Translations under genes and position numbers: made by a program
Notes under the pieces: generated by a model
What the model was told of the DNA's origin: nothing
Database searches by the model: none
The model's input: only the letters and a program-made list of their open reading frames with translations
Assembly (NCBI RefSeq): GCF_019744875.1
Contig: NZ_JAIETU010000005.1
Coordinates: forward strand, 248,001 to 312,000
DNA length: 64,000 bases
Origin: Hyphomicrobium sp.
GTDB lineage: Bacteria > Pseudomonadota > Alphaproteobacteria > Rhizobiales > Hyphomicrobiaceae
Reading direction: 5' to 3'
Shown here: positions 11,917 through 22,154 of the stretch, one piece after another
Position numbering within the stretch: position 1 is the stretch's first letter
How the letters are laid out: each line of letters starts with the position of its first letter

Positions 11917-12279
11917 GTGAACATCTCAGATTTCACGACTCCGCTTTCTTATCTGATGTCCGGTTGGGCGTTCATATTGGCCCTCGCCGCAGTCTATGTG
12001 GCGCGGTCGCTCTGGATCGCTCGCCGCGAATGGTCCGAGTGCGCGACCGACACCAAGATGCTTTACCTGATGGTCGCGCCTCCGCTCACGCTCGCGGTCG
12101 ACGTGCTGCAGGCTACAGACCGTCTCTTCTGGCGACGCGCCGTCCGCAAGGCGGGCTCGCGATCGCACGCGTCGTATCGCGGCCATCAGTGGGATGCGCA
12201 GCGTGCGCGCGGTCAGGCAGCGTCGTCGCGTGCCTCCGCGCACGTCTCGGCCAAGCACGCATTGCGCACAAACGGCTGA
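11917..12279 (+). CDS. Hypothetical protein with N-terminal TM segment
   Basis: MNISDFTTPLSYLMSGWAFILALAAVYVARSLW...; no recognised domain. Confidence 0.35.
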   Translation: MNISDFTTPLSYLMSGWAFILALAAVYVARSLWIARREWSECATDTKMLYLMVAPPLTLAVDVLQATDRLFWRRAVRKAGSRSHASYRGHQWDAQRARGQAASSRASAHVSAKHALRTNG

Positions 12280-12360
12280 GCGCACACGCCGCCGCAGTCA
12301 CCGAATCAACGCCTACGCATTGTGCCGCCGACTACGGTGCGGATGCGCGGTATCGAGGCG

Positions 12361-12837
12361 TCAGCCGCGCCGCGCGGCTTCGATAGCTGCGACATCGATC
12401 TTGCGCATGGTCATCATCGCCGCGAACGCGCGCTTGGCTTCCGCACCGCCCGCGGCCATGGCGTCGGTCAGCACGCGCGGCGTGATCTGCCAGTTGATGC
12501 CCCACTTGTCCTTGCACCAGCCGCAAGCGCTTTCCTGGCCGCCGTTGCCGACGATGGCGTTCCAGTAGCGGTCGGTCTCTTCCTGGTTGTCGGTTGCGAT
12601 CTGGAACGAGAACGCTTCGCTGTGCTTGAACGCAGGCCCGCCGTTGAGGCCGATACAGGGGACGCCCGCGACTGTGAAGTCGACCGTCAGCACGTCGCCT
12701 TCCTTGCCCGAAGGGTAGTCGCCCGGCGCGCGGTGCACGGCCGTGACACGGCTGTCCGGGAACACCTCCGCGTAGAAGCGGGCCGCGGCTTCGGCGTCCT
12801 TGTCGTACCAGATGCAGATGGTGTTCTTCGCGATCAT
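12361..12837 (-). CDS. VOC family protein (PhnB-like / 3-demethylubiquinone-9 3-methyltransferase family)
   Basis: NTICIWYDKDAEAAARFYAEVFPDSRV...FKHSEAFSFQIATDNQEETDRYWNAIVGNGGQESACGWCKDKWGINWQITP. Confidence 0.88.
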   Translation of the reverse strand: MIAKNTICIWYDKDAEAAARFYAEVFPDSRVTAVHRAPGDYPSGKEGDVLTVDFTVAGVPCIGLNGGPAFKHSEAFSFQIATDNQEETDRYWNAIVGNGGQESACGWCKDKWGINWQITPRVLTDAMAAGGAEAKRAFAAMMTMRKIDVAAIEAARRG

Positions 12838-13133
12838 CTCCGGTCCTCTCGCTTTGGATCTTCGATCCCAGGTGTGGGTGCCTTGAAGACGATCCAACGT
12901 TCGCCGAACCGACACCGCTCCGCAAGCAAACGCGAAATTTCACGCGCTCGCTGAATCATATCGACAATTCGGGAGATCAGTCTCGGCCCGGCAGAGGTAG
13001 CTCCTCTTCGCGCCGTGGCCAGACCGCTAACTTACGGTTGCATACGCCGCATGGGGATGATTACACTTCTCCCGCAAGGCTTTCTGGGTACTGAAAAGCG
13101 CTACAGGCCAGTGTTTTCCGATCGGCAGGCGGC

Positions 13134-14291
13134 TTGGGGGGACCAATGCGCTATTCTGCAGTCGCGAAGCTTGTTCTAACGACATTCTTGGCAATTGCAG
13201 CTTGGGTGAACCAATCCCCCGGCAGGGAGGCGACTGGCATTAGCGCCCCGCCAGCGCGGACCGTTCGGGTGAAGTCTGAGGGCTATGTCGTAGCCCAACG
13301 ATACCAACAGCAGTATCAATGGCAACAACAGCAGCAAAGGCAACAACAGCAGCAGCAGCTTCAACAGCAGCGCCTTCAACAACAGCAGCTCCAGCAGGAG
13401 CGGCTACGCCAGCAACAACTCCAACAGCAACGAATGCAGCAGCAGCAACAGGCGATGCGTCAGCGTCTGGAGCAGCAGCGCATCCAGATGCAGCGCCTGC
13501 AACAACAACGCATGCAGCAAATGCAGGCCCAACGTCAGCGTCTGCTGGATAGACAGGCCCAACAGCAAGGCCAGGCTCAGCATCGGCAGCAAGATCAACT
13601 TCGCCGTAAGCAGCAACAAGACGACACAAAGCGGACGAAGAATGCGGCCTCAAAAGGGACCGATCTTGCCGTGTTGACGGCCACAGTCGTTCCCGCTCGA
13701 CTACAGGGACGCCTCACTTCACTCTCTGAGCGATTGCCCAATCTCAAGACTGACGCCCAACACCGCAAACATCTTCAACGCGCAGGTAAGCTTGGTACAG
13801 CGGCGCCTGGGTCCGGTGGAGGCGGTAACAACTCCGGAGGGAGCGGTGGCACCCCACCGGAAAAGCGGCTCAAGGACGAGTTCGGGAAGCACGCGGGCAA
13901 GAACGGTGGAGATAGCGCGAGGCCAACAATCAGGCTCAATGCCTCGACTCGCATCGCTATCGCACGCTTTGCAGTAACGGCCGAGAAAGGAGCGAGTACG
14001 AACTTCCGCTCGGCATCTCTATTGAAGGACCATTTCAAAAAGCATGGAGCGGAGTTTGACGCAAGAACGCCTGCTCACTACCGCCGCTTGGCAGATAAAT
14101 TTCTTACCGGATCCATCGGGCCCGACACTGTAGAAAAAAAAAGAAGCAGTGACGGCGACACTGTCCGTTACAATAGCAAAACGAACGAATTTGGCGTAGT
14201 ATCTCAAGATGGAATAATAAGGACATATTTTAAACTCGATAAAACAAAACACAAGCACAATACGAATATGGATTATTTTAATGCGCAATGA
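13134..14291 (+). CDS. Sec-signal Q-rich protein with C-terminal polymorphic-toxin-like (BECR/CdiA-CT tRNase-like) domain
   Basis: Signal peptide, about 100 residues dominated by Gln, G/S-rich linker, then LLKDHFKKHGAEFDARTPAHYRRLADKFL...RSSDGDTVRYNSKTNEFGVVSQDGIIRTYFKLD...NMDYFNAQ. Confidence 0.7.
   Translation: MGGPMRYSAVAKLVLTTFLAIAAWVNQSPGREATGISAPPARTVRVKSEGYVVAQRYQQQYQWQQQQQRQQQQQQLQQQRLQQQQLQQERLRQQQLQQQRMQQQQQAMRQRLEQQRIQMQRLQQQRMQQMQAQRQRLLDRQAQQQGQAQHRQQDQLRRKQQQDDTKRTKNAASKGTDLAVLTATVVPARLQGRLTSLSERLPNLKTDAQHRKHLQRAGKLGTAAPGSGGGGNNSGGSGGTPPEKRLKDEFGKHAGKNGGDSARPTIRLNASTRIAIARFAVTAEKGASTNFRSASLLKDHFKKHGAEFDARTPAHYRRLADKFLTGSIGPDTVEKKRSSDGDTVRYNSKTNEFGVVSQDGIIRTYFKLDKTKHKHNTNMDYFNAQ
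13300..13625 (+). repeat. CAG/CAA-rich (Gln-coding) low-complexity tract
   Basis: Dense runs of caacag/cagcag codons (e.g. QQQQQRQQQQQQLQQQRLQQQQLQQ). Confidence 0.85.
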
Positions 14292-14547
14292 AAATCAATT
14301 TCTTTGTCCCGTTTGCGGTTATCCGCACCTTTTAGAGCCGCCTTACAATCGAAGCGGTGGTGCGTCGTACGAAATTTGTCCGAGCTGCGGCACTGAATTT
14401 GGTTTTGACGACATTGCGAAGTCTTTTGATGAACTAAGAGCAAATTGGGTGGCGGCAGGATGTCACTGGTGGTCATCGGCACAGAAGCCGCCATCTGACT
14501 GGAGCCCCGATCAACAACTAGCAAACCTGGATAAGAACGCGCAATAA
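14281..14547 (+). CDS. Cys-rich small protein, probable cognate immunity protein
   Basis: FLCPVCGYPHLLEPPYNRSGGASYEICPSCGTEFGFDDIAKSFDELRANWVAAGCHWW; start lies inside the 3' end of the toxin-like ORF (11-nt overlap). Confidence 0.65.
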   Translation: MRNENQFLCPVCGYPHLLEPPYNRSGGASYEICPSCGTEFGFDDIAKSFDELRANWVAAGCHWWSSAQKPPSDWSPDQQLANLDKNAQ

Positions 14548-14571
14548 AATCCACGGCTGAGGTGATCCAGA

Positions 14572-17208
14572 ATGGTCAAGGTTGACAGGTTTTTTGCAAG
14601 CACCGTTCAGCCGTACGTCAGCCGGACTGCTTCGGCGCATGGTAGCTGGGTTCAAAGGCTCAGCCACTTCATGCTGCACATATTACTGTTAGCGATGATA
14701 GCTGCTACATCCGCTCAAGCTCAAACCGCCCGAGAGCTATTTCAACAACAACGCCAAATGCAAAGGCAGGAGAGGTTCAACCGACTTCAGGAGCAGCGAA
14801 GGCAAACGCTTCACGGGCATGAATTCGGTGCAGGCTCAGATGGCGTGCGTATGTCCCCGGCAAGCGGTACCCGTTGCCAGCCAGCCATCAAGATTCGCCT
14901 TCAGACCAATAAGCAAAGCTTCTTTGCCAACAATCAGCGAGAGCTTGTTGCGCTGTGGTCGCAGATTGTCGGTTACATCCAACAAGCCTGTCCTGAGGTG
15001 CAAGACATCGAGATCCAGGGTGTGGGTCAGACTATAACTGTCTACAGCGGTCGCGCTTCTGCCGCGCAGGGTTGGACCATATCGCATGACCGCACACCGC
15101 TTCAGATCGCGATCGAGGATCTTGAGAAGCAGCGCGCCACATTTGAAAACACTCAATCGCTCGATGCAGTACTCAAGAAGCATGAAAGAGCGTTTGGAGG
15201 CGGTGATACGCCGGATGCGCGAGCCTTGAAGGCTAAAATTGATGAGCGAAAATTTGCGCTCGCCGATGAGAAGCTGTCGAGTTTCGCGGCTGAAGTCGAG
15301 AAAGTGCCGGAGACGATAGAGGGATACAATTCCTTAGAGAGACTTGGCTCCAAGCTCTATCAATCTTTGTACTTCAGCGCTCGGGACAAGATTACAAAGC
15401 TCGAGGAGATCAGGGAGAGCCGTAGGCGCGCTATCGGCATCAAATTACTTGAGGATTTTCGGGGGACCCTCGCAACTGCTCCCAAAGGTTGGCGCGATGC
15501 GGCTGCCACCGTCGACTTGGCGAACAGGCTTCAGGGCACCTGGGGCTCCAAGATCGCGGAACTCGGCCCACTCGTTTCACAGACCATTGCCGACGTCAAA
15601 GCGCAGGTTCAAGCGGAATCGCCGACTTTCTTGCACACCATCCAAAACTACACAGTGGACTGGGATAGTCTCTCGAAGTTGCGCAATGATCTAACAAAGG
15701 TAAGGCAAGACGCAAAGACGGTAGATGCACTCTCCGCTTACGTTGCACCGCTCGAAGAGCGTCAAAAAATGATTCTCGCTGAACTCCAACAGATCCATCT
15801 CGCTGAAGTCGAGCAAGTTGGCAGCGAGATCGGTGATCTCGAAGCAATCATCGGCTATGCCGATACGCTAGCCGGTAAGTTTACCGCCGCGGGCGATACT
15901 CATGCGGCCGGGAACCTGAAGGAAGCAATTGCGCGCCGGGTGAATGAACTTGTTGGTGCGGGTTACGCTCAGTTCGAGGGCGAGATCGAGCAGCTCCCTG
16001 TTACGATGGAAAGCCGGGCGGAACTGCTGGAAGCCGCTAGTGACTACGAGGAGTTGGAGGTCGAGGTTCCGGCGTTTGGTCGATACCGGGAGCTGGCACA
16101 GTTGAAAGCCGAAGAAATAGGCGAAGGTTTTTGCCGGGATTCTGCCAAGCAGTTCGGCTCCGATGAGCATCTCAGGAAGACGATCCTCATCTCGGAAGAA
16201 GCAATCCCGATGGGGAGGTTCGTTTGCGATATCGCCGCTGTTGGGAACTCACTCGTCAAAGATGACTCGACGTGGACTTGGATCACCGGACTGATCAAAA
16301 GTGAAGTAGGCGTTACGTTTGAGCATAGAGATGGCGAGCGAACTTACGTCGCGTTGGCGCCATCGAGCGATTCAAAGCACCAGGGTGCCCTATTGGGCTC
16401 GTCTAGCCAGCCCGAAGGCTCAAGCTCTCGGTCGCTGACCGAGGCCGAATGGCTCGATTTCGCACGCGATATGGTTCGCCCTCCCTCCACTGGCTTGCCG
16501 GATGGGGAAGGCCGCACGGATTGCGATAACCACGCAGCCGACCGCCAAGATCCCAAGAAGCTCGGCGCAGGCACCGAGTTCGACTCCGAAAAGCTCGATT
16601 TTCGAATGCTCGAGCGGGGATTGGAGGCTTGCATCGCCGCCGTAGAGCAGCGACCGGATGATCCCCGCCAGAAATACCAACTCGGCCGACTTCTATGGAC
16701 GGCTGGGGATCACGAGCAAGCTGCGCCATTCGTCTCGGGATCCGCGGACGCGGGCTATCCTGCCGCTCTCAATCTGAGGGCAACAATGCTTCTCACGAGC
16801 GGCACCGACAAAGATGCATTTATCGATGCCTACCTTTTATATATGCAGGCTGCCAACGAGGGATACCAACCGGCCGCAGTAGCGGCACGCGAGCTTAATC
16901 CAGATGGCATTGAAATTTACAAGGAACTGCCCCCCCCAACGGAAGCAGATGTCCTGAGCACGCTGCCGGGCGAGACTTGCACGGAAGTGTTCGGGGTTCG
17001 GAGCTGCGTTCGCTTCACAGGTGCGACAGTGAAGGATTGCATTCAAATGTCCGCAACCGACTTCTCGTGCACGTGGCGGCCACACGCTGACTGCGGGACA
17101 TCAGCGAATGACTTTGCCAACGCCTTGTTCAAGATGGCCTGCTCTCAGACTGAAGATGCTTTCAGCACCTTCCGAAAGCTAGCTTCGGGCTGGCAGAAGC
17201 TTGACTGA
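14572..17208 (+). CDS. Large secreted protein of unknown function, C-terminal Sel1/TPR-like segment
   Basis: Hydrophobic signal LLLAMIAATSAQA; Q/R-rich segment LFQQQRQMQRQERFNRLQEQRRQ; helical middle; KYQLGRLLWTAGDHEQAAPFVSGSADAGYPAALNL Sel1/TPR-like. Confidence 0.6.
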   Translation: MVKVDRFFASTVQPYVSRTASAHGSWVQRLSHFMLHILLLAMIAATSAQAQTARELFQQQRQMQRQERFNRLQEQRRQTLHGHEFGAGSDGVRMSPASGTRCQPAIKIRLQTNKQSFFANNQRELVALWSQIVGYIQQACPEVQDIEIQGVGQTITVYSGRASAAQGWTISHDRTPLQIAIEDLEKQRATFENTQSLDAVLKKHERAFGGGDTPDARALKAKIDERKFALADEKLSSFAAEVEKVPETIEGYNSLERLGSKLYQSLYFSARDKITKLEEIRESRRRAIGIKLLEDFRGTLATAPKGWRDAAATVDLANRLQGTWGSKIAELGPLVSQTIADVKAQVQAESPTFLHTIQNYTVDWDSLSKLRNDLTKVRQDAKTVDALSAYVAPLEERQKMILAELQQIHLAEVEQVGSEIGDLEAIIGYADTLAGKFTAAGDTHAAGNLKEAIARRVNELVGAGYAQFEGEIEQLPVTMESRAELLEAASDYEELEVEVPAFGRYRELAQLKAEEIGEGFCRDSAKQFGSDEHLRKTILISEEAIPMGRFVCDIAAVGNSLVKDDSTWTWITGLIKSEVGVTFEHRDGERTYVALAPSSDSKHQGALLGSSSQPEGSSSRSLTEAEWLDFARDMVRPPSTGLPDGEGRTDCDNHAADRQDPKKLGAGTEFDSEKLDFRMLERGLEACIAAVEQRPDDPRQKYQLGRLLWTAGDHEQAAPFVSGSADAGYPAALNLRATMLLTSGTDKDAFIDAYLLYMQAANEGYQPAAVAARELNPDGIEIYKELPPPTEADVLSTLPGETCTEVFGVRSCVRFTGATVKDCIQMSATDFSCTWRPHADCGTSANDFANALFKMACSQTEDAFSTFRKLASGWQKLD

Positions 17209-17244
17209 TAGTCATAGTCGCGGGGTACCGCGTAGGGGGAGCCC

Positions 17245-19284
17245 ATGTGGTCGGAGCTCAAAGGTATTGTAAGACTGCTATCCGCCCTAATTGTATTCGT
17301 TGGGCTTTTGTCTGCACAGCAGGCCTACGGCGATCACTCTCCTGGTAGCTCCTGTAAGATTTGCGAACACATAGCCAACATTCGGGAAAACTGGGCGGAA
17401 AGCACTCCGGCGCAAACCTCCTCGGAGAGTGGACAGTCCCAGGATCTAGAAGCCTTGGGCATTCGCGCAACGGAAGTGCAGTTTCCGTCTAAGAATGGAT
17501 ACGCCCTGCGAATTGATAAGATCACCCCTGATGGGATTGTCGCTAAAGCCCGACCGAAAGGCGAGAACGACGCCTCGATCAAGGAAGGTGACTATATTTC
17601 GTTGTCCGAAGTTTACAAAAGCTACTCAGGGTTAGGCGCTGGAGAGTTCCTTCGAACGCATGGAAGCAGGCAGCAGATAGATGCTTTGCTTGTTCGTATC
17701 CGCGACAAGTCATACAAGCCCTCCAAAGGGTATCTCGGTCTCCAGGCTCAGATTTCGCGATTTGGCACGAGCAAGATGCCGTTCGAAATCGTGAGCGACA
17801 CCGAGGTTGAGTTCTTTGAGAAGCCCTTCTTTATCGATTTGCCACACGCCCAAGGTGAAACTCGTCCCGAGGTGGCAGGCAGCAGCGTTCCGGATAATCC
17901 GGGTGTCACAGCCTCTCTGAAGGAGAGGCCGTTGGGTCTTGATAGCGCCAAAGGCTTTAAGCCAAAATTCGGCGAGGGTACGATCGATGACCGCTTCGAT
18001 CCGGGACGCTCTGCTCTATCCCAATTTCTTGAGTACGCCGATTTGTTGGGTATTGAGAAGCGGCAGATTTCATCGGCCCTCTGGTACGGCAAACTCACGC
18101 CCCATCGCGAAGACCTTGAGCGCGTTAGGCGTGAAGCAATTGAACTTAAGGCTGCAGAGCTGGGGCTCCAAGCATGCACCGGTGGACCCTACTATCCATC
18201 CAAGTACTGCGAATCGACTTTTAACTGCGGAGTGCTGGAGAAAAACGGATACTCCAATTGCGGTAGCACTCAGTTCGAGTGGGATGGTTGGAAGGAAGAG
18301 TTCGGCATCGTTCCGCAGTGGGTTGCGTTCGGGGCTGGCCATCTTGGTGACTGCGATGGCACGGGCGACCCGAAGCCTGCGTATTGCAAAGACAGGAAGA
18401 AAACTCAGGACGTCGGACCGCCCATGTTTGGCACTGACTATTCGGACCCGCTGACCCTTGATGCAGAAGGCATGAAAGCAGTTGAACAAACTCAAGGATA
18501 TTTTTCCGGCGCAGCCGCCTGGATTGCTTTGAGAGACAAACCGAACCCAGCCAGGGGCATTCACCACCCTACCGGCAGGACGCTTCTCTACGACCGTATA
18601 CGGCAAAGTGTGTTCATGCCGTACTTAGCCAAACGGTTGGGAACAACGCTGTCACCTCAAGAGTCTTCCGAAAACCCAGAACAAATGGCTGTTCCAGACA
18701 TTCCAGGCATTCCAACTGAGCATAGCCGCGTCATCGCGTCGATCTACTCTGGAAAACGTGTTCAGTTCTCAAATGAAAGCATGGTTTTTGTGGGTGGCCT
18801 TGCTGAGGAACTTCAAATTCGTTGCGGCCTGCCATCGAACTCCGCTGAGCAACAGGTAATCTCGGGGTTCATCAAGTCTGCCGCTGTTTTCGTAACAGGT
18901 CGGATGGAACCACCCGGCTCTGAGGTTGACTTTGGGGAGGCTGCGAAGTCGAGATTAACTGAGGTCTCTTCCATGGCCAAAGGAAAGGCTTTTGGTAGCT
19001 TGCTACCATGCGGATCACCGCACGTTCAGAAATTAGCATCGGGTTTGGCATCGACGTTGCGCGCCAACGAAAAAGGCCCCAGCGGAGGACCATCTACCTT
19101 TTTGGCGGGATGTTCCCAATCGATGCCAGCTGACAAATGCGAATGCTTTGCCAAGAATGCCCAGGCTGTCGTGCCAAACATCTATGAAAATATCTATGAT
19201 CGTGAGGTCGTACGCAATGTCGTAACGAGCAATCCAATGGTTGGAATGCAGATCGTGATGGCGTGCGGAATTGTAAATTATTGA
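17245..19284 (+). CDS. Large secreted protein of unknown function
   Basis: Signal-like N-terminus (LLSALIVFVGLLSAQQAYG); PDZ-like stretch (LRIDKITPDGIVAKARP...IKEGDYISL); Cys-rich C-terminus (CSQSMPADKCECFAKNAQ). Confidence 0.6.
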   Translation: MWSELKGIVRLLSALIVFVGLLSAQQAYGDHSPGSSCKICEHIANIRENWAESTPAQTSSESGQSQDLEALGIRATEVQFPSKNGYALRIDKITPDGIVAKARPKGENDASIKEGDYISLSEVYKSYSGLGAGEFLRTHGSRQQIDALLVRIRDKSYKPSKGYLGLQAQISRFGTSKMPFEIVSDTEVEFFEKPFFIDLPHAQGETRPEVAGSSVPDNPGVTASLKERPLGLDSAKGFKPKFGEGTIDDRFDPGRSALSQFLEYADLLGIEKRQISSALWYGKLTPHREDLERVRREAIELKAAELGLQACTGGPYYPSKYCESTFNCGVLEKNGYSNCGSTQFEWDGWKEEFGIVPQWVAFGAGHLGDCDGTGDPKPAYCKDRKKTQDVGPPMFGTDYSDPLTLDAEGMKAVEQTQGYFSGAAAWIALRDKPNPARGIHHPTGRTLLYDRIRQSVFMPYLAKRLGTTLSPQESSENPEQMAVPDIPGIPTEHSRVIASIYSGKRVQFSNESMVFVGGLAEELQIRCGLPSNSAEQQVISGFIKSAAVFVTGRMEPPGSEVDFGEAAKSRLTEVSSMAKGKAFGSLLPCGSPHVQKLASGLASTLRANEKGPSGGPSTFLAGCSQSMPADKCECFAKNAQAVVPNIYENIYDREVVRNVVTSNPMVGMQIVMACGIVNY

Positions 19285-20060
19285 CCTCAGGTTGGCCGCC
19301 GAGCTTAATCGGGGCCCAAACTTTGTAGTCATTCCTGGCATCTTGCCGGCATGATGCCCGAGAACCATCGGAAGCAAACCAGTCGCGTGATCCTGTCGAT
19401 CCCGCTCACGCTCGATCTCAAGGCCGAACCCGGCGTGCGGGGCCGCGGCCGGTCAGCGACTATGCGCGGGACATGTTGTTTCCGGCGAATGAAGTCCCGT
19501 GCCCCGCGTAACAACCGAAAGGATCTGCAGGCTCTGGCCGTCTTTCTGGCCAGGCTTGGGGCCACGGAGGGCGTCCGGCGGCTTATAGGACCTGGCACGG
19601 CTTGCGCGGCTTGGCGTTTTTCCGATTACACCGGAGATGGAGGCGGCCATATGCAGGCTTGCACTGACGTTGCCGAGATCGAAGCCCTGCTAACGAAGGC
19701 GCTGGGCATCCGGGAAAGGTAGGCCAGGATGATCCACAAGGCTTCACAGTGCGGCGGCGGCAACTCGAAGAACAGGAAGGCGAGCGTGCCGCTCACGGTG
19801 GCATCATGCGCTTCGCCGCCCAGATCGATGCGACGAAGAAGGGAAGCAGCGCCTTCAGAACATTCGCCGCCGAGACGGCACAGAGGACAAGGGCGGCAGC
19901 GATGTCGAGGATGGAAAGCGTTGCCCTCAATCATCCACACTCCGAAATAATTGCGGACGATCAAACCTCACTTTCAGCGGCCGGTTGGGGTTATGTTCCG
20001 GGTTGGACGCTGAGAGGTTATTGTGGCGCTCTGGCAAAGGTGAGGGATGCCGTGCGAATC

Positions 20061-20186
20061 ATGGTGCTACTGCTAATGCTGGCTGCAGTAACGGCCTGTT
20101 CGCGCTACGATCCCGTGCCGCCCGGCGGCATTGTCACCTGCCATACCGCACAACCGTCCGGCGAGCACCAGAAAGGCTGCGGCTGA
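20061..20186 (+). CDS. Possible very small lipoprotein
   Basis: MVLLLMLAAVTACSRYDPVPPGGIVTCHTAQPSGEHQKGCG: hydrophobic segment plus lipobox-like VTAC. Confidence 0.3.
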   Translation: MVLLLMLAAVTACSRYDPVPPGGIVTCHTAQPSGEHQKGCG

Positions 20187-20500
20187 TGGATCGCGGTAAT
20201 CAGGCGCTCTTGTCATATGCATCCAGCATGGTCCCGTGACTATCCGCACGGTGCAGGAGCGCATTCAGGACGCCGAAGGACTTTGCCTGCGATGATCGAC
20301 GGGCAGCGGGGCAAGCTGGATGGTCATCCCCTCAGTTTGTCGAGAACCCAAGGAAACTGCGGGCTTATGAGCGATTGCCCGACCGTAGAGTGGCCCCCAA
20401 ACTGCTTTGTTTGATGGACCACTGCTCTACCGCAGAAATGAGGGTGTCAAACCGCCGGAATGACCCGTTTTTCAGAGGTTAAAGGGTGGCAATTATGGTT

Positions 20501-20576
<76 letters not shown>

Positions 20577-21269: not shown

Positions 21270-22154
21270 ATGGAGGGAGCCACTATGGCCAAGCCGATGA
21301 ACGTCATTGAATTTATGAAGCTTTTCCCGAGCGACGACGCTTGCCTGGACCACTTGTTCAAGGCGCGGTTCGGCGCGGATCACGAGTGCTCGCGCTGCGG
21401 CGAGACCGGGAAGTGGAAAAAGCTGACCAAGATGCCTGCGTACACCTGCCAGTGCGGAAACCACGTTCACCCCATGGTCGGAACGCCGTTCCACAAGTCG
21501 CACACGCCGCTCCAGAAGTGGTTCTATGCGATGTACCTGTTCACCACGACGCGCCATGGCGTTCCCGCCAAGGAGCTTCAGCGCCAGCTTTCGGTGAACT
21601 ACAAGACCGCTTGGCGCATGGGCCATGAAATCCGGAAGTATCTCGCGCTCGTAGACGGCGACCCGCCGCTGTCTGGCCACGTCGAAGTTGACGAAACCTA
21701 TGTCGGCGGTCGCGTGAAGGGGCAGGGCCGTGGCCGTCGCAAGGGCGACAACAAAACCATCGTTGTCGGTATTGCCGAGCGTGGCGGCGACGTGATCGCC
21801 CGCGTCGTGCCGGACAACAAGAGCGCGACGCTTGTGCAGCACGTTCTTCAGAACGTCACACCGAACTCGACCGTCAGCACGGACGAGGCGAAGCAGTATC
21901 ACTATCTGAAGGAACTCGGTTACCCGAACCACGGCGTCGTGAACCACACGACTGAAGAATGGGTGCGCGGCGTGCATCACACGAACACCATTGAGGCGTT
22001 CTGGTCGCTTCTGAAGCGCTCGATCCGTGGCACACACGTTCAGGTTTCAGCGCGCCACCTGCCTAAGTACCTCGCGGAGTTCGAGTTCCGGTGGAATCTC
22101 CGGCACTCTCCCGAGGCGATGTTTCCTCTCCTACTAAAGCGCCTTGGCTCATAA
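21270..22154 (+). CDS. IS1595 family transposase
   Basis: Zn-ribbon CSRCGETGKWKKLTKMPAYTCQCGNHVHPMVGTPFHKSHTPLQKWFYAMY; GHVEVDETYVGGRVKGQGRGR; VNHTTEEWVRG..HTNTIEAFWSLLKRSIRGTHVQVSARHLPKYLAEFEFRWNLR. Confidence 0.95.
   Translation: MEGATMAKPMNVIEFMKLFPSDDACLDHLFKARFGADHECSRCGETGKWKKLTKMPAYTCQCGNHVHPMVGTPFHKSHTPLQKWFYAMYLFTTTRHGVPAKELQRQLSVNYKTAWRMGHEIRKYLALVDGDPPLSGHVEVDETYVGGRVKGQGRGRRKGDNKTIVVGIAERGGDVIARVVPDNKSATLVQHVLQNVTPNSTVSTDEAKQYHYLKELGYPNHGVVNHTTEEWVRGVHHTNTIEAFWSLLKRSIRGTHVQVSARHLPKYLAEFEFRWNLRHSPEAMFPLLLKRLGS

What the first reader, a model, noticed from the sequence alone, without database searches (positions are those of the whole stretch)
13134..14547. Candidate novel toxin/immunity pair: polyglutamine-rich secreted carrier with a polymorphic RNase-like C-terminus
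Seen: Sec-type signal, a tract of roughly 100 residues dominated by Gln, a G/S linker, then a C-terminal domain LLKDHFKKHGAEFDARTPAHYRRLADKFL..RSSDGDTVRYNSKTNEFGVVSQDGIIRTYFKLD..DYFNAQ. A 88-aa Cys-rich ORF (CPVC...CPSC) starts 11 nt before the toxin ORF ends. Hand count of 14161-14280 gives 38/120 G+C, far below the surrounding sequence. Established: polymorphic toxins (CdiA/Rhs/WapA types) carry exchangeable C-terminal nuclease tips, including BECR-fold tRNases with this kind of HGxEF...GDTVRYxxKTNEF...IRTYFKP pattern, followed immediately by immunity genes. Inference: the toxin tip and immunity gene were acquired onto a resident Q-rich carrier. No Rhs, filamentous haemagglutinin, LXG or VgrG delivery module is present, so the carrier architecture may be undescribed.
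Basis: partly seen in the sequence, partly recalled or inferred. Interest (0 to 1): 0.8.

Follow-up and report, generated by a model that had tools for sequence, protein, structure and literature searches.

The report
Secreted colicin-D-like RNase toxin with immunity
A bacterium carries, on a small strain-specific gene island, a secreted protein whose tip is a known kind of RNA-cutting antibacterial toxin together with the small metal-binding protein that should protect its maker; the toxin pair is of a known type and only its glutamine-rich stalk is unusual.

Summary
ORF 13146-14291 (+) has a Sec-type signal, a tract with 57 Gln in 100 residues, a G/S linker and a 97-aa C-terminal domain. An 88-aa CxxC...CxxC ORF (14281-14547) overlaps it by 11 nt. 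The G+C minimum at 14157-14337 is the only such dip in 64 kb.

The domain is a BECR-fold, colicin-D-like RNase. Its model matches the E. coli O32:H37 CDI toxin (PDB 8EY4, TM 0.71/0.78) and colicin D, with catalytic Hxx[ED] and [TS]xxK residues present (H300/E303, T360/K363). The same toxin, usually with a related CxxC protein next door, caps CdiA/FHA, Rhs, PAAR, WapA-like and SAR2788 carriers and phage portal proteins.

So the toxin/immunity reading stands, but the pair is not novel: the O32:H37 complex is solved and its toxin described as an EF-Tu-dependent RNase. Acquisition onto a resident Q-rich carrier is not supported: the carrier has no detectable relative in about 400 genomes of the order, and the whole unit sits in an ~8.4-kb insertion beside tRNA-Ala that four sister species lack. 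Still unusual: the Q-rich Sec-only carrier and an immunity subfamily just outside Pfam Cys_rich_CPCC. Delivery is unresolved.

The parts
13146..14291 (+).
   Evidence: C-terminal domain homologous to CdiA/Rhs tips
13146..13220 (+). Probable Sec signal peptide (residues 1-25, by eye)
   Evidence: sequence; no predictor run
13308..13625 (+). Q-rich tract, residues 55-160, 56% Gln, 15% Arg, 5-residue period
13626..13997 (+). Linker, residues 161-284, including the Gly/Ser stretch; no relatives found
13998..14288 (+). Toxin domain, residues 285-381: colicin-D-like BECR fold
14043..14054 (+). HGAE: H300 (aligned with colicin D H611) and E303 (aligned with D614)
   Evidence: alignment; conservation
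14223..14234 (+). TYFK: T360 (aligned with colicin D S677) and K363
   Evidence: alignment; conservation
14281..14547 (+). Immunity gene, 88 aa, C9-x2-C12 ... C33-x2-C36; start overlaps toxin stop by 11 nt
14157..14337 (.). G+C minimum of the window, across the toxin/immunity junction
12139..20500 (.). Insertion (about 8.4 kb) relative to four sister species, next to the 3' end of tRNA-Ala(GGC); holds the pair plus neighbours
14572..17208 (+). Island neighbour: 878-aa secreted protein with a Q/R-rich N-terminus and Sel1/TPR-like region; role in the system unknown
17245..19284 (+). Island neighbour: 679-aa secreted protein; role unknown

Best explanation
This is a Sec-exported antibacterial polymorphic toxin with its own immunity protein. 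The C-terminal 97 residues form a colicin-D-like BECR ribonuclease using H300, E303, T360 and K363. In a sensitive cell it would cut RNA, most likely tRNA or other RNA in an EF-Tu-assisted way as reported for its homologue in E. coli O32:H37. The overlapping 88-aa gene makes a cytoplasmic protein that holds a metal ion with four cysteines and binds the toxin, so that siblings and the producer survive. The signal peptide takes the protein across the inner membrane; the Q/R-rich, 5-residue-repeat segment and G/S linker act as an extended stalk. Shown here by sequence or model: homology, fold, catalytic residues, conserved linkage of the pair, and island location. Inferred: RNase activity, neutralisation, metal binding, export. 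Unknown: how it leaves the cell and enters a target.
For: Profile of 11 relatives hits 8ey4_A at 4.6e-29 and colicin D at 0.015. AlphaFold2 model, pLDDT 83, two helices then a four-strand meander; Foldseek 8ey4_A E 1.7e-5, TM 0.71/0.78, and colicin D with probability 1.00, TM about 0.6. Motif of Tox-ColicinD, Hxx[ED] and [TS]xxK (PMC3482391), present at the aligned positions. The toxin domain is found at the end of CdiA/FHA, Rhs, WapA-like, SAR2788, PAAR and phage portal proteins. A CxxC immunity relative lies next to it in 17 of 18 toxin loci examined first, 14 by the immunity profile and 3 by PF14206, often with the same 11-nt overlap. In a wider set, 18 of 25 loci with the catalytic His have such a neighbour and 0 of 10 without it do. 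The O32:H37 homologue is reported as an EF-Tu-dependent RNase with an Fe-cysteine immunity protein (PMC12585627).
Against: No experiment on this pair. The lysine pair K607/K608 of colicin D is not kept (D295/H296 here). The immunity protein scores below the PF14206 cut-off (15.4 against 24.5), its AlphaFold model is poor (pLDDT 66) and finds no fold match. No delivery machinery was identified. Some loci carry the domain without a CxxC neighbour. A few of the 18 loci were found through the immunity protein, so 17/18 is an upper estimate, and the loci are not phylogenetically independent.
Confidence: 0.86

Rival explanations
1. The Q-rich protein is a domesticated envelope protein whose colicin-D-like domain has a house-keeping role (RNA or peptide binding), not a weapon, as may be the case for the lipoproteins of family f115.
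For: The domain occurs on small chromosomal lipoprotein-like proteins without immunity neighbours in one alphaproteobacterial family.
Against: Those versions have lost the catalytic His (N or R in 10 of 10) and have no CxxC neighbour; the window protein keeps the catalytic residues, has the neighbour with overlapping reading frames, and lies on a strain-specific island.
Confidence: 0.05
2. The carrier is a one-off fusion: a toxin/immunity cassette joined by recombination to an unrelated signal peptide and repeat tract, with no working delivery route (an 'orphan tip').
For: No relative of the carrier was found in related genomes; the Q tract is made of simple 15-bp repeats; orphan tips are common in polymorphic toxin loci (general knowledge).
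Against: The frame is intact over 381 codons with a signal peptide; short signal-peptide-plus-domain proteins with an adjacent CxxC immunity gene exist elsewhere (L083, L084).
Confidence: 0.2
3. A chromosomal toxin-antitoxin or phage-defence module acting inside the producer, not between cells.
For: Small adjacent toxin and neutraliser; homologues on phage portal proteins.
Against: Signal peptide at the N-terminus; homologous tips sit on secreted carriers; no PADLOC match.
Confidence: 0.05

Closest known systems
CdiA-CT/CdiI of E. coli O32:H37 (PDB 8EY4, 8EY3; PMC12585627)
   Same: Homologous toxin domain (E 1e-6 single sequence, 4.6e-29 profile; TM 0.71/0.78); partner is a small Cys protein of the family to which the window's is related (profile-profile probability 95.8% between the window-type and CPCC-type immunity alignments)
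   Different: Carried by a CDI filamentous protein with PT-VENN; immunity is named a Cys_rich_CPCC protein; the window has HFKKH where 8EY4 has HWTKH, so the reported tryptophan-histidine contact may differ
Colicin D C-terminal tRNase (1v74, 1tfk, 5znm)
   Same: BECR fold; H611/D614/S677 positions matched by H300/E303/T360
   Different: K607/K608 pair not kept; immunity protein ImmD is of another family; colicin D has its own receptor and translocation domains
Rhizobium binae and Ochrobactrum quorumnocens tip/immunity pairs (L002, L003)
   Same: Closest relatives: 50-53% toxin identity, 47% immunity identity, identical 11-nt overlap
   Different: R. binae carrier is a haemagglutinin-repeat protein; the Ochrobactrum frame is short, like an orphan tip
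Sec/T2SS polymorphic toxins (Zhang et al. 2012, PMC3482391), e.g. MafB type
   Same: Signal peptide, N-terminal region limited to one lineage, exchangeable toxin tip, immunity gene downstream
   Different: No MafB-N or other known N-terminal domain; a Q-rich repeat tract instead
Pfam PF14206 Cys_rich_CPCC
   Same: CxxC...CxxC pattern and adjacency to the same toxin family (L031, L033, L074, L085, L086)
   Different: Window protein is below the curated cut-off; has CPVCGY...CPSCGTEFGFDD and a W-rich C-terminal half instead of CPCCG...CPVCxWEDD...GGAN

Membership tests
Tox-ColicinD (BECR RNase) | BECR fold: N-terminal helices then four-strand meander | tested here: met
Tox-ColicinD (BECR RNase) | Hxx[ED] motif | tested here: met
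   H300-G-A-E303
Tox-ColicinD (BECR RNase) | [TS]xxK motif | tested here: met
   T360-Y-F-K363
Tox-ColicinD (BECR RNase) | [KH]K pair (K607/K608 of colicin D) | tested here: inconclusive
   D295-H296 at the aligned place; the His is conserved in the family but the K is not
Pfam PF11429 Colicin_D | Recognised by the curated family model | tested here: not met
   no match for the window protein; one relative at E 0.0095, so it is a divergent relative and not filed as a PF11429 member
Tox-ColicinD (BECR RNase) | RNase/tRNase activity | not testable with these tools
   needs biochemistry
CdiA-CT O32:H37 toxin family | Sequence homology over the whole toxin domain | tested here: met
CdiA-CT O32:H37 toxin family | Adjacent cysteine metal-binding immunity protein | tested here: met
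   adjacency and four invariant Cys; metal binding itself not testable
CdiA-CT O32:H37 toxin family | EF-Tu dependence | not testable with these tools
   reported for the homologue only
PF14206 Cys_rich_CPCC | Score at or above the curated cut-off (24.5 bits) | tested here: not met
   15.4 bits; related by profile-profile comparison only
Polymorphic toxin system | Tip shared with unrelated N-terminal carriers | tested here: met
Polymorphic toxin system | Immunity gene immediately downstream, conserved with the tip | tested here: met
Polymorphic toxin system | Carrier N-terminus conserved with other tips in relatives | tested here: not met
   no credible relative of N-terminus, Q tract or linker (weak hits were antisense or chance frames)
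CDI, Rhs, T6SS or LXG effector | FHA/TPS, Rhs, PAAR/VgrG or LXG domain in the carrier | tested here: not met
   no Pfam or NCBIfam domain in the carrier

The most novel reading that the evidence does not exclude
The signal peptide plus Q/R-rich 5-residue-repeat stalk is a carrier type of its own (perhaps working with the two secreted island neighbours at 14572-19284) that displays or releases toxin tips in this lineage, and the CPVCGY...CPxCGxEFG proteins are a separate, unnamed immunity family sister to Cys_rich_CPCC.
Probability: 0.15. Interest if true: 0.5.

Novelty: new member of a known kind. Interest (0 to 1): 0.36.

Why it matters
It extends an EF-Tu-dependent, colicin-D-like RNase family, whose closest solved structure comes from a CDI system, to a Sec-only Q-rich carrier in an alphaproteobacterium. 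It also shows that one toxin family is paired with two related cysteine immunity families across CDI, Rhs, T6SS (PAAR), Gram-positive and phage-portal carriers. It gives a clear test of whether EF-Tu dependence is a property of the whole toxin family or of the O32:H37 branch. The stalk question (how a Sec-only toxin without known delivery parts reaches a target) is general and open.

Tried and rejected
Relatives of the linker turned out to be antisense or chance frames in unrelated genes. The gene at 12361-12915 was tried as a synteny anchor and failed: it is itself inside the island and its homologues lie elsewhere. A direct repeat of the tRNA-Ala end that would mark an integrase site was not found. 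The immunity AlphaFold model was too weak for a fold search to mean anything. Heptad coiled-coil periodicity in the Q tract: no excess at lag 7; the period is 5. PADLOC and NCBIfam gave nothing for the toxin domain. A first viral-contig scan with the single sequence found nothing; the alignment scan found one locus and an immunity scan two more.

Full report
What is there. Residues 1-25 look like a Sec signal by eye. Residues 55-160 are 56% Gln and 15% Arg; the densest 100 residues hold 57 Gln. Hydrophobic residues recur every 5, not every 7, positions, and the DNA shows 15-bp tandem units. A linker with a G/S stretch follows, then a 97-residue domain. The 88-aa ORF 14281-14547 overlaps the end by 11 nt. 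The G+C minimum at 14157-14337 is the only one of its size in the window. The carrier part has 54-64% G+C, the toxin domain 42.5%, its second half 35%, and the immunity gene 49%. This fits the tip having a history of its own.

What the tip is. Pfam, NCBIfam and PADLOC do not recognise it. phmmer against PDB sequences gives one hit, 8ey4 chain A, at 1e-6. A profile of 11 relatives reaches 8ey4_A at 4.6e-29 and colicin D at about 0.015. Single relatives touch PBECR3 and Colicin_D. An AlphaFold2 model (pLDDT 83, five-sequence alignment) has two helices and a four-strand meander, the BECR core as described in PMC3482391. Foldseek ranks 8ey4_A first (TM 0.71/0.78) and then only colicin D chains (probability 1.00, TM about 0.6) before noise. 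In the HMM alignment the colicin D residues H611, D614 and S677 meet H300, E303 and T360, matching the published Tox-ColicinD motifs Hxx[ED] and [TS]xxK. The lysine pair K607/K608 is not kept. 8EY4 is the toxin-immunity complex of E. coli O32:H37. Its authors report a colicin-D-like fold, non-specific RNase activity that needs EF-Tu, and an immunity protein that holds Fe3+ with cysteines (PMC12585627).

The pair travels together. tblastn finds the tip in 23 plasmid records and the small protein in 38. Annotated carriers include haemagglutinin-repeat/CdiA/FHA proteins (Rhizobium, Burkholderia, E. coli, Salmonella), Rhs (Salmonella), SAR2788 (Priestia) and DNRLRE/WapA-like proteins (Paenibacillus). 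Further carriers are phage portal proteins, a large phage protein (L086) and a PAAR-type T6SS protein (L092; read by eye). In 18 toxin loci examined first, 14 have a relative of the window immunity protein next to the tip and three more have a PF14206 protein. Rhizobium, Ochrobactrum and a Salmonella Rhs locus share the exact 11-nt overlap. The window-type immunity family and PF14206 are related by profile-profile comparison (probability 95.8%, E 6.8e-9), but the window protein itself fails the PF14206 cut-off, so I do not file it there. C9, C12, C33 and C36 are invariant in 12 relatives.

A useful internal control: in a wider sample, 18 of 25 loci with the catalytic His have a CxxC neighbour, while 0 of 10 loci that lost it (Asn or Arg) do (Fisher p = 1e-4). 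All 10 come from one bacterial family and two of the 18 were found through the immunity protein, so the number is only indicative. It still agrees with the His being part of what the neighbour has to neutralise.

The carrier and the island. The signal/Q-tract segment, the linker, and a linker sub-segment were searched in 30, 100 and 397 related genomes, the linker also in plasmids; nothing credible came back except the window's own genome. The tip and the immunity protein are also absent from the relatives searched. In four sister species the genes mtnA-mtnB-thioredoxin-like lie next to tRNA-Ala(GGC) and an FYDLN-acid gene, with 0.1-1.3 kb between the conserved stretches that end at window 12132-12138 and start at 20501; in the window the gap is about 8.4 kb. 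A fifth relative has about 30 kb between the same markers. So the whole unit, not just the tip, is a strain-specific insertion beside a tRNA gene. The island also holds an 878-aa and a 679-aa secreted protein without known domains, apart from a Sel1/TPR-like region in the former; whether they serve the toxin is unknown.

How it probably works. Shown by sequence or model: nuclease fold, catalytic residues, conserved linkage with a cysteine protein, exchange between carriers. Inferred from the O32:H37 homologue: RNase activity with help from EF-Tu, and blocking by a metal-cysteine partner. Inferred from sequence alone: Sec export and a stalk role for the Q tract. Not known: the route across the outer membrane and into a target. 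The nearest described class is the Sec/T2SS polymorphic toxins with only a signal peptide or a lineage-limited N-terminus; small secreted versions with the same tip and a CxxC neighbour exist in other alphaproteobacteria (L083, L084). The alternative that this is a one-off fusion without working delivery is kept at 0.2.

Verdict. A good catch and a correct reading of the sequence; the pair is a new member of a known toxin-immunity kind. The remaining unusual features are the Q-rich stalk and an unnamed sister family of Cys_rich_CPCC.

Noticed in passing
L077, L079, L082, L093-L097, L099, L100: In one alphaproteobacterial family the colicin-D-like domain sits on small lipoprotein-like secreted proteins that lost the catalytic His (Asn in 9, Arg in 1 of 10) and have no immunity neighbour: probably a domesticated, catalytically dead form with an unknown envelope role.
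   Followed up: partly
L075, L076, L078, L080: In another family (f118) a membrane-anchored, His-intact version is followed by a different gene with a shared ...NWWYFRTPTRSN-like ending, seen in several of the loci: a possible unrelated immunity protein.
   Followed up: no
L087 2065-4261, L086 842-4512, phage FP_Brigit portal: Phage portal or large phage proteins end in this toxin; in L087 and L086 the matching CxxC immunity gene overlaps the end of the toxin frame, suggesting phage-borne toxin tips outside the MuF family.
   Followed up: partly
window 12139-20500: Insertion of about 8.4 kb beside the 3' end of tRNA-Ala(GGC); a congener (G298) has about 30 kb between the same markers, so this looks like an insertion hot spot. 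No integrase or direct-repeat site was found.
   Followed up: partly
window 14572-17208 and 17245-19284: Two large secreted proteins of the island without detectable full-length relatives; the first has a Q/R-rich start (QQQRQMQRQERFNRLQEQRRQ) like the carrier.
   Followed up: partly
window 12361-12915 (-): 3-dmu-9_3-mt/glyoxalase-fold gene inside the island, although close homologues sit elsewhere in most congeners: relocated or duplicated.
   Followed up: partly
window 21270-22154: IS1595/ISXO2-type transposase just beyond the tRNA and FYDLN-acid gene.
   Followed up: no
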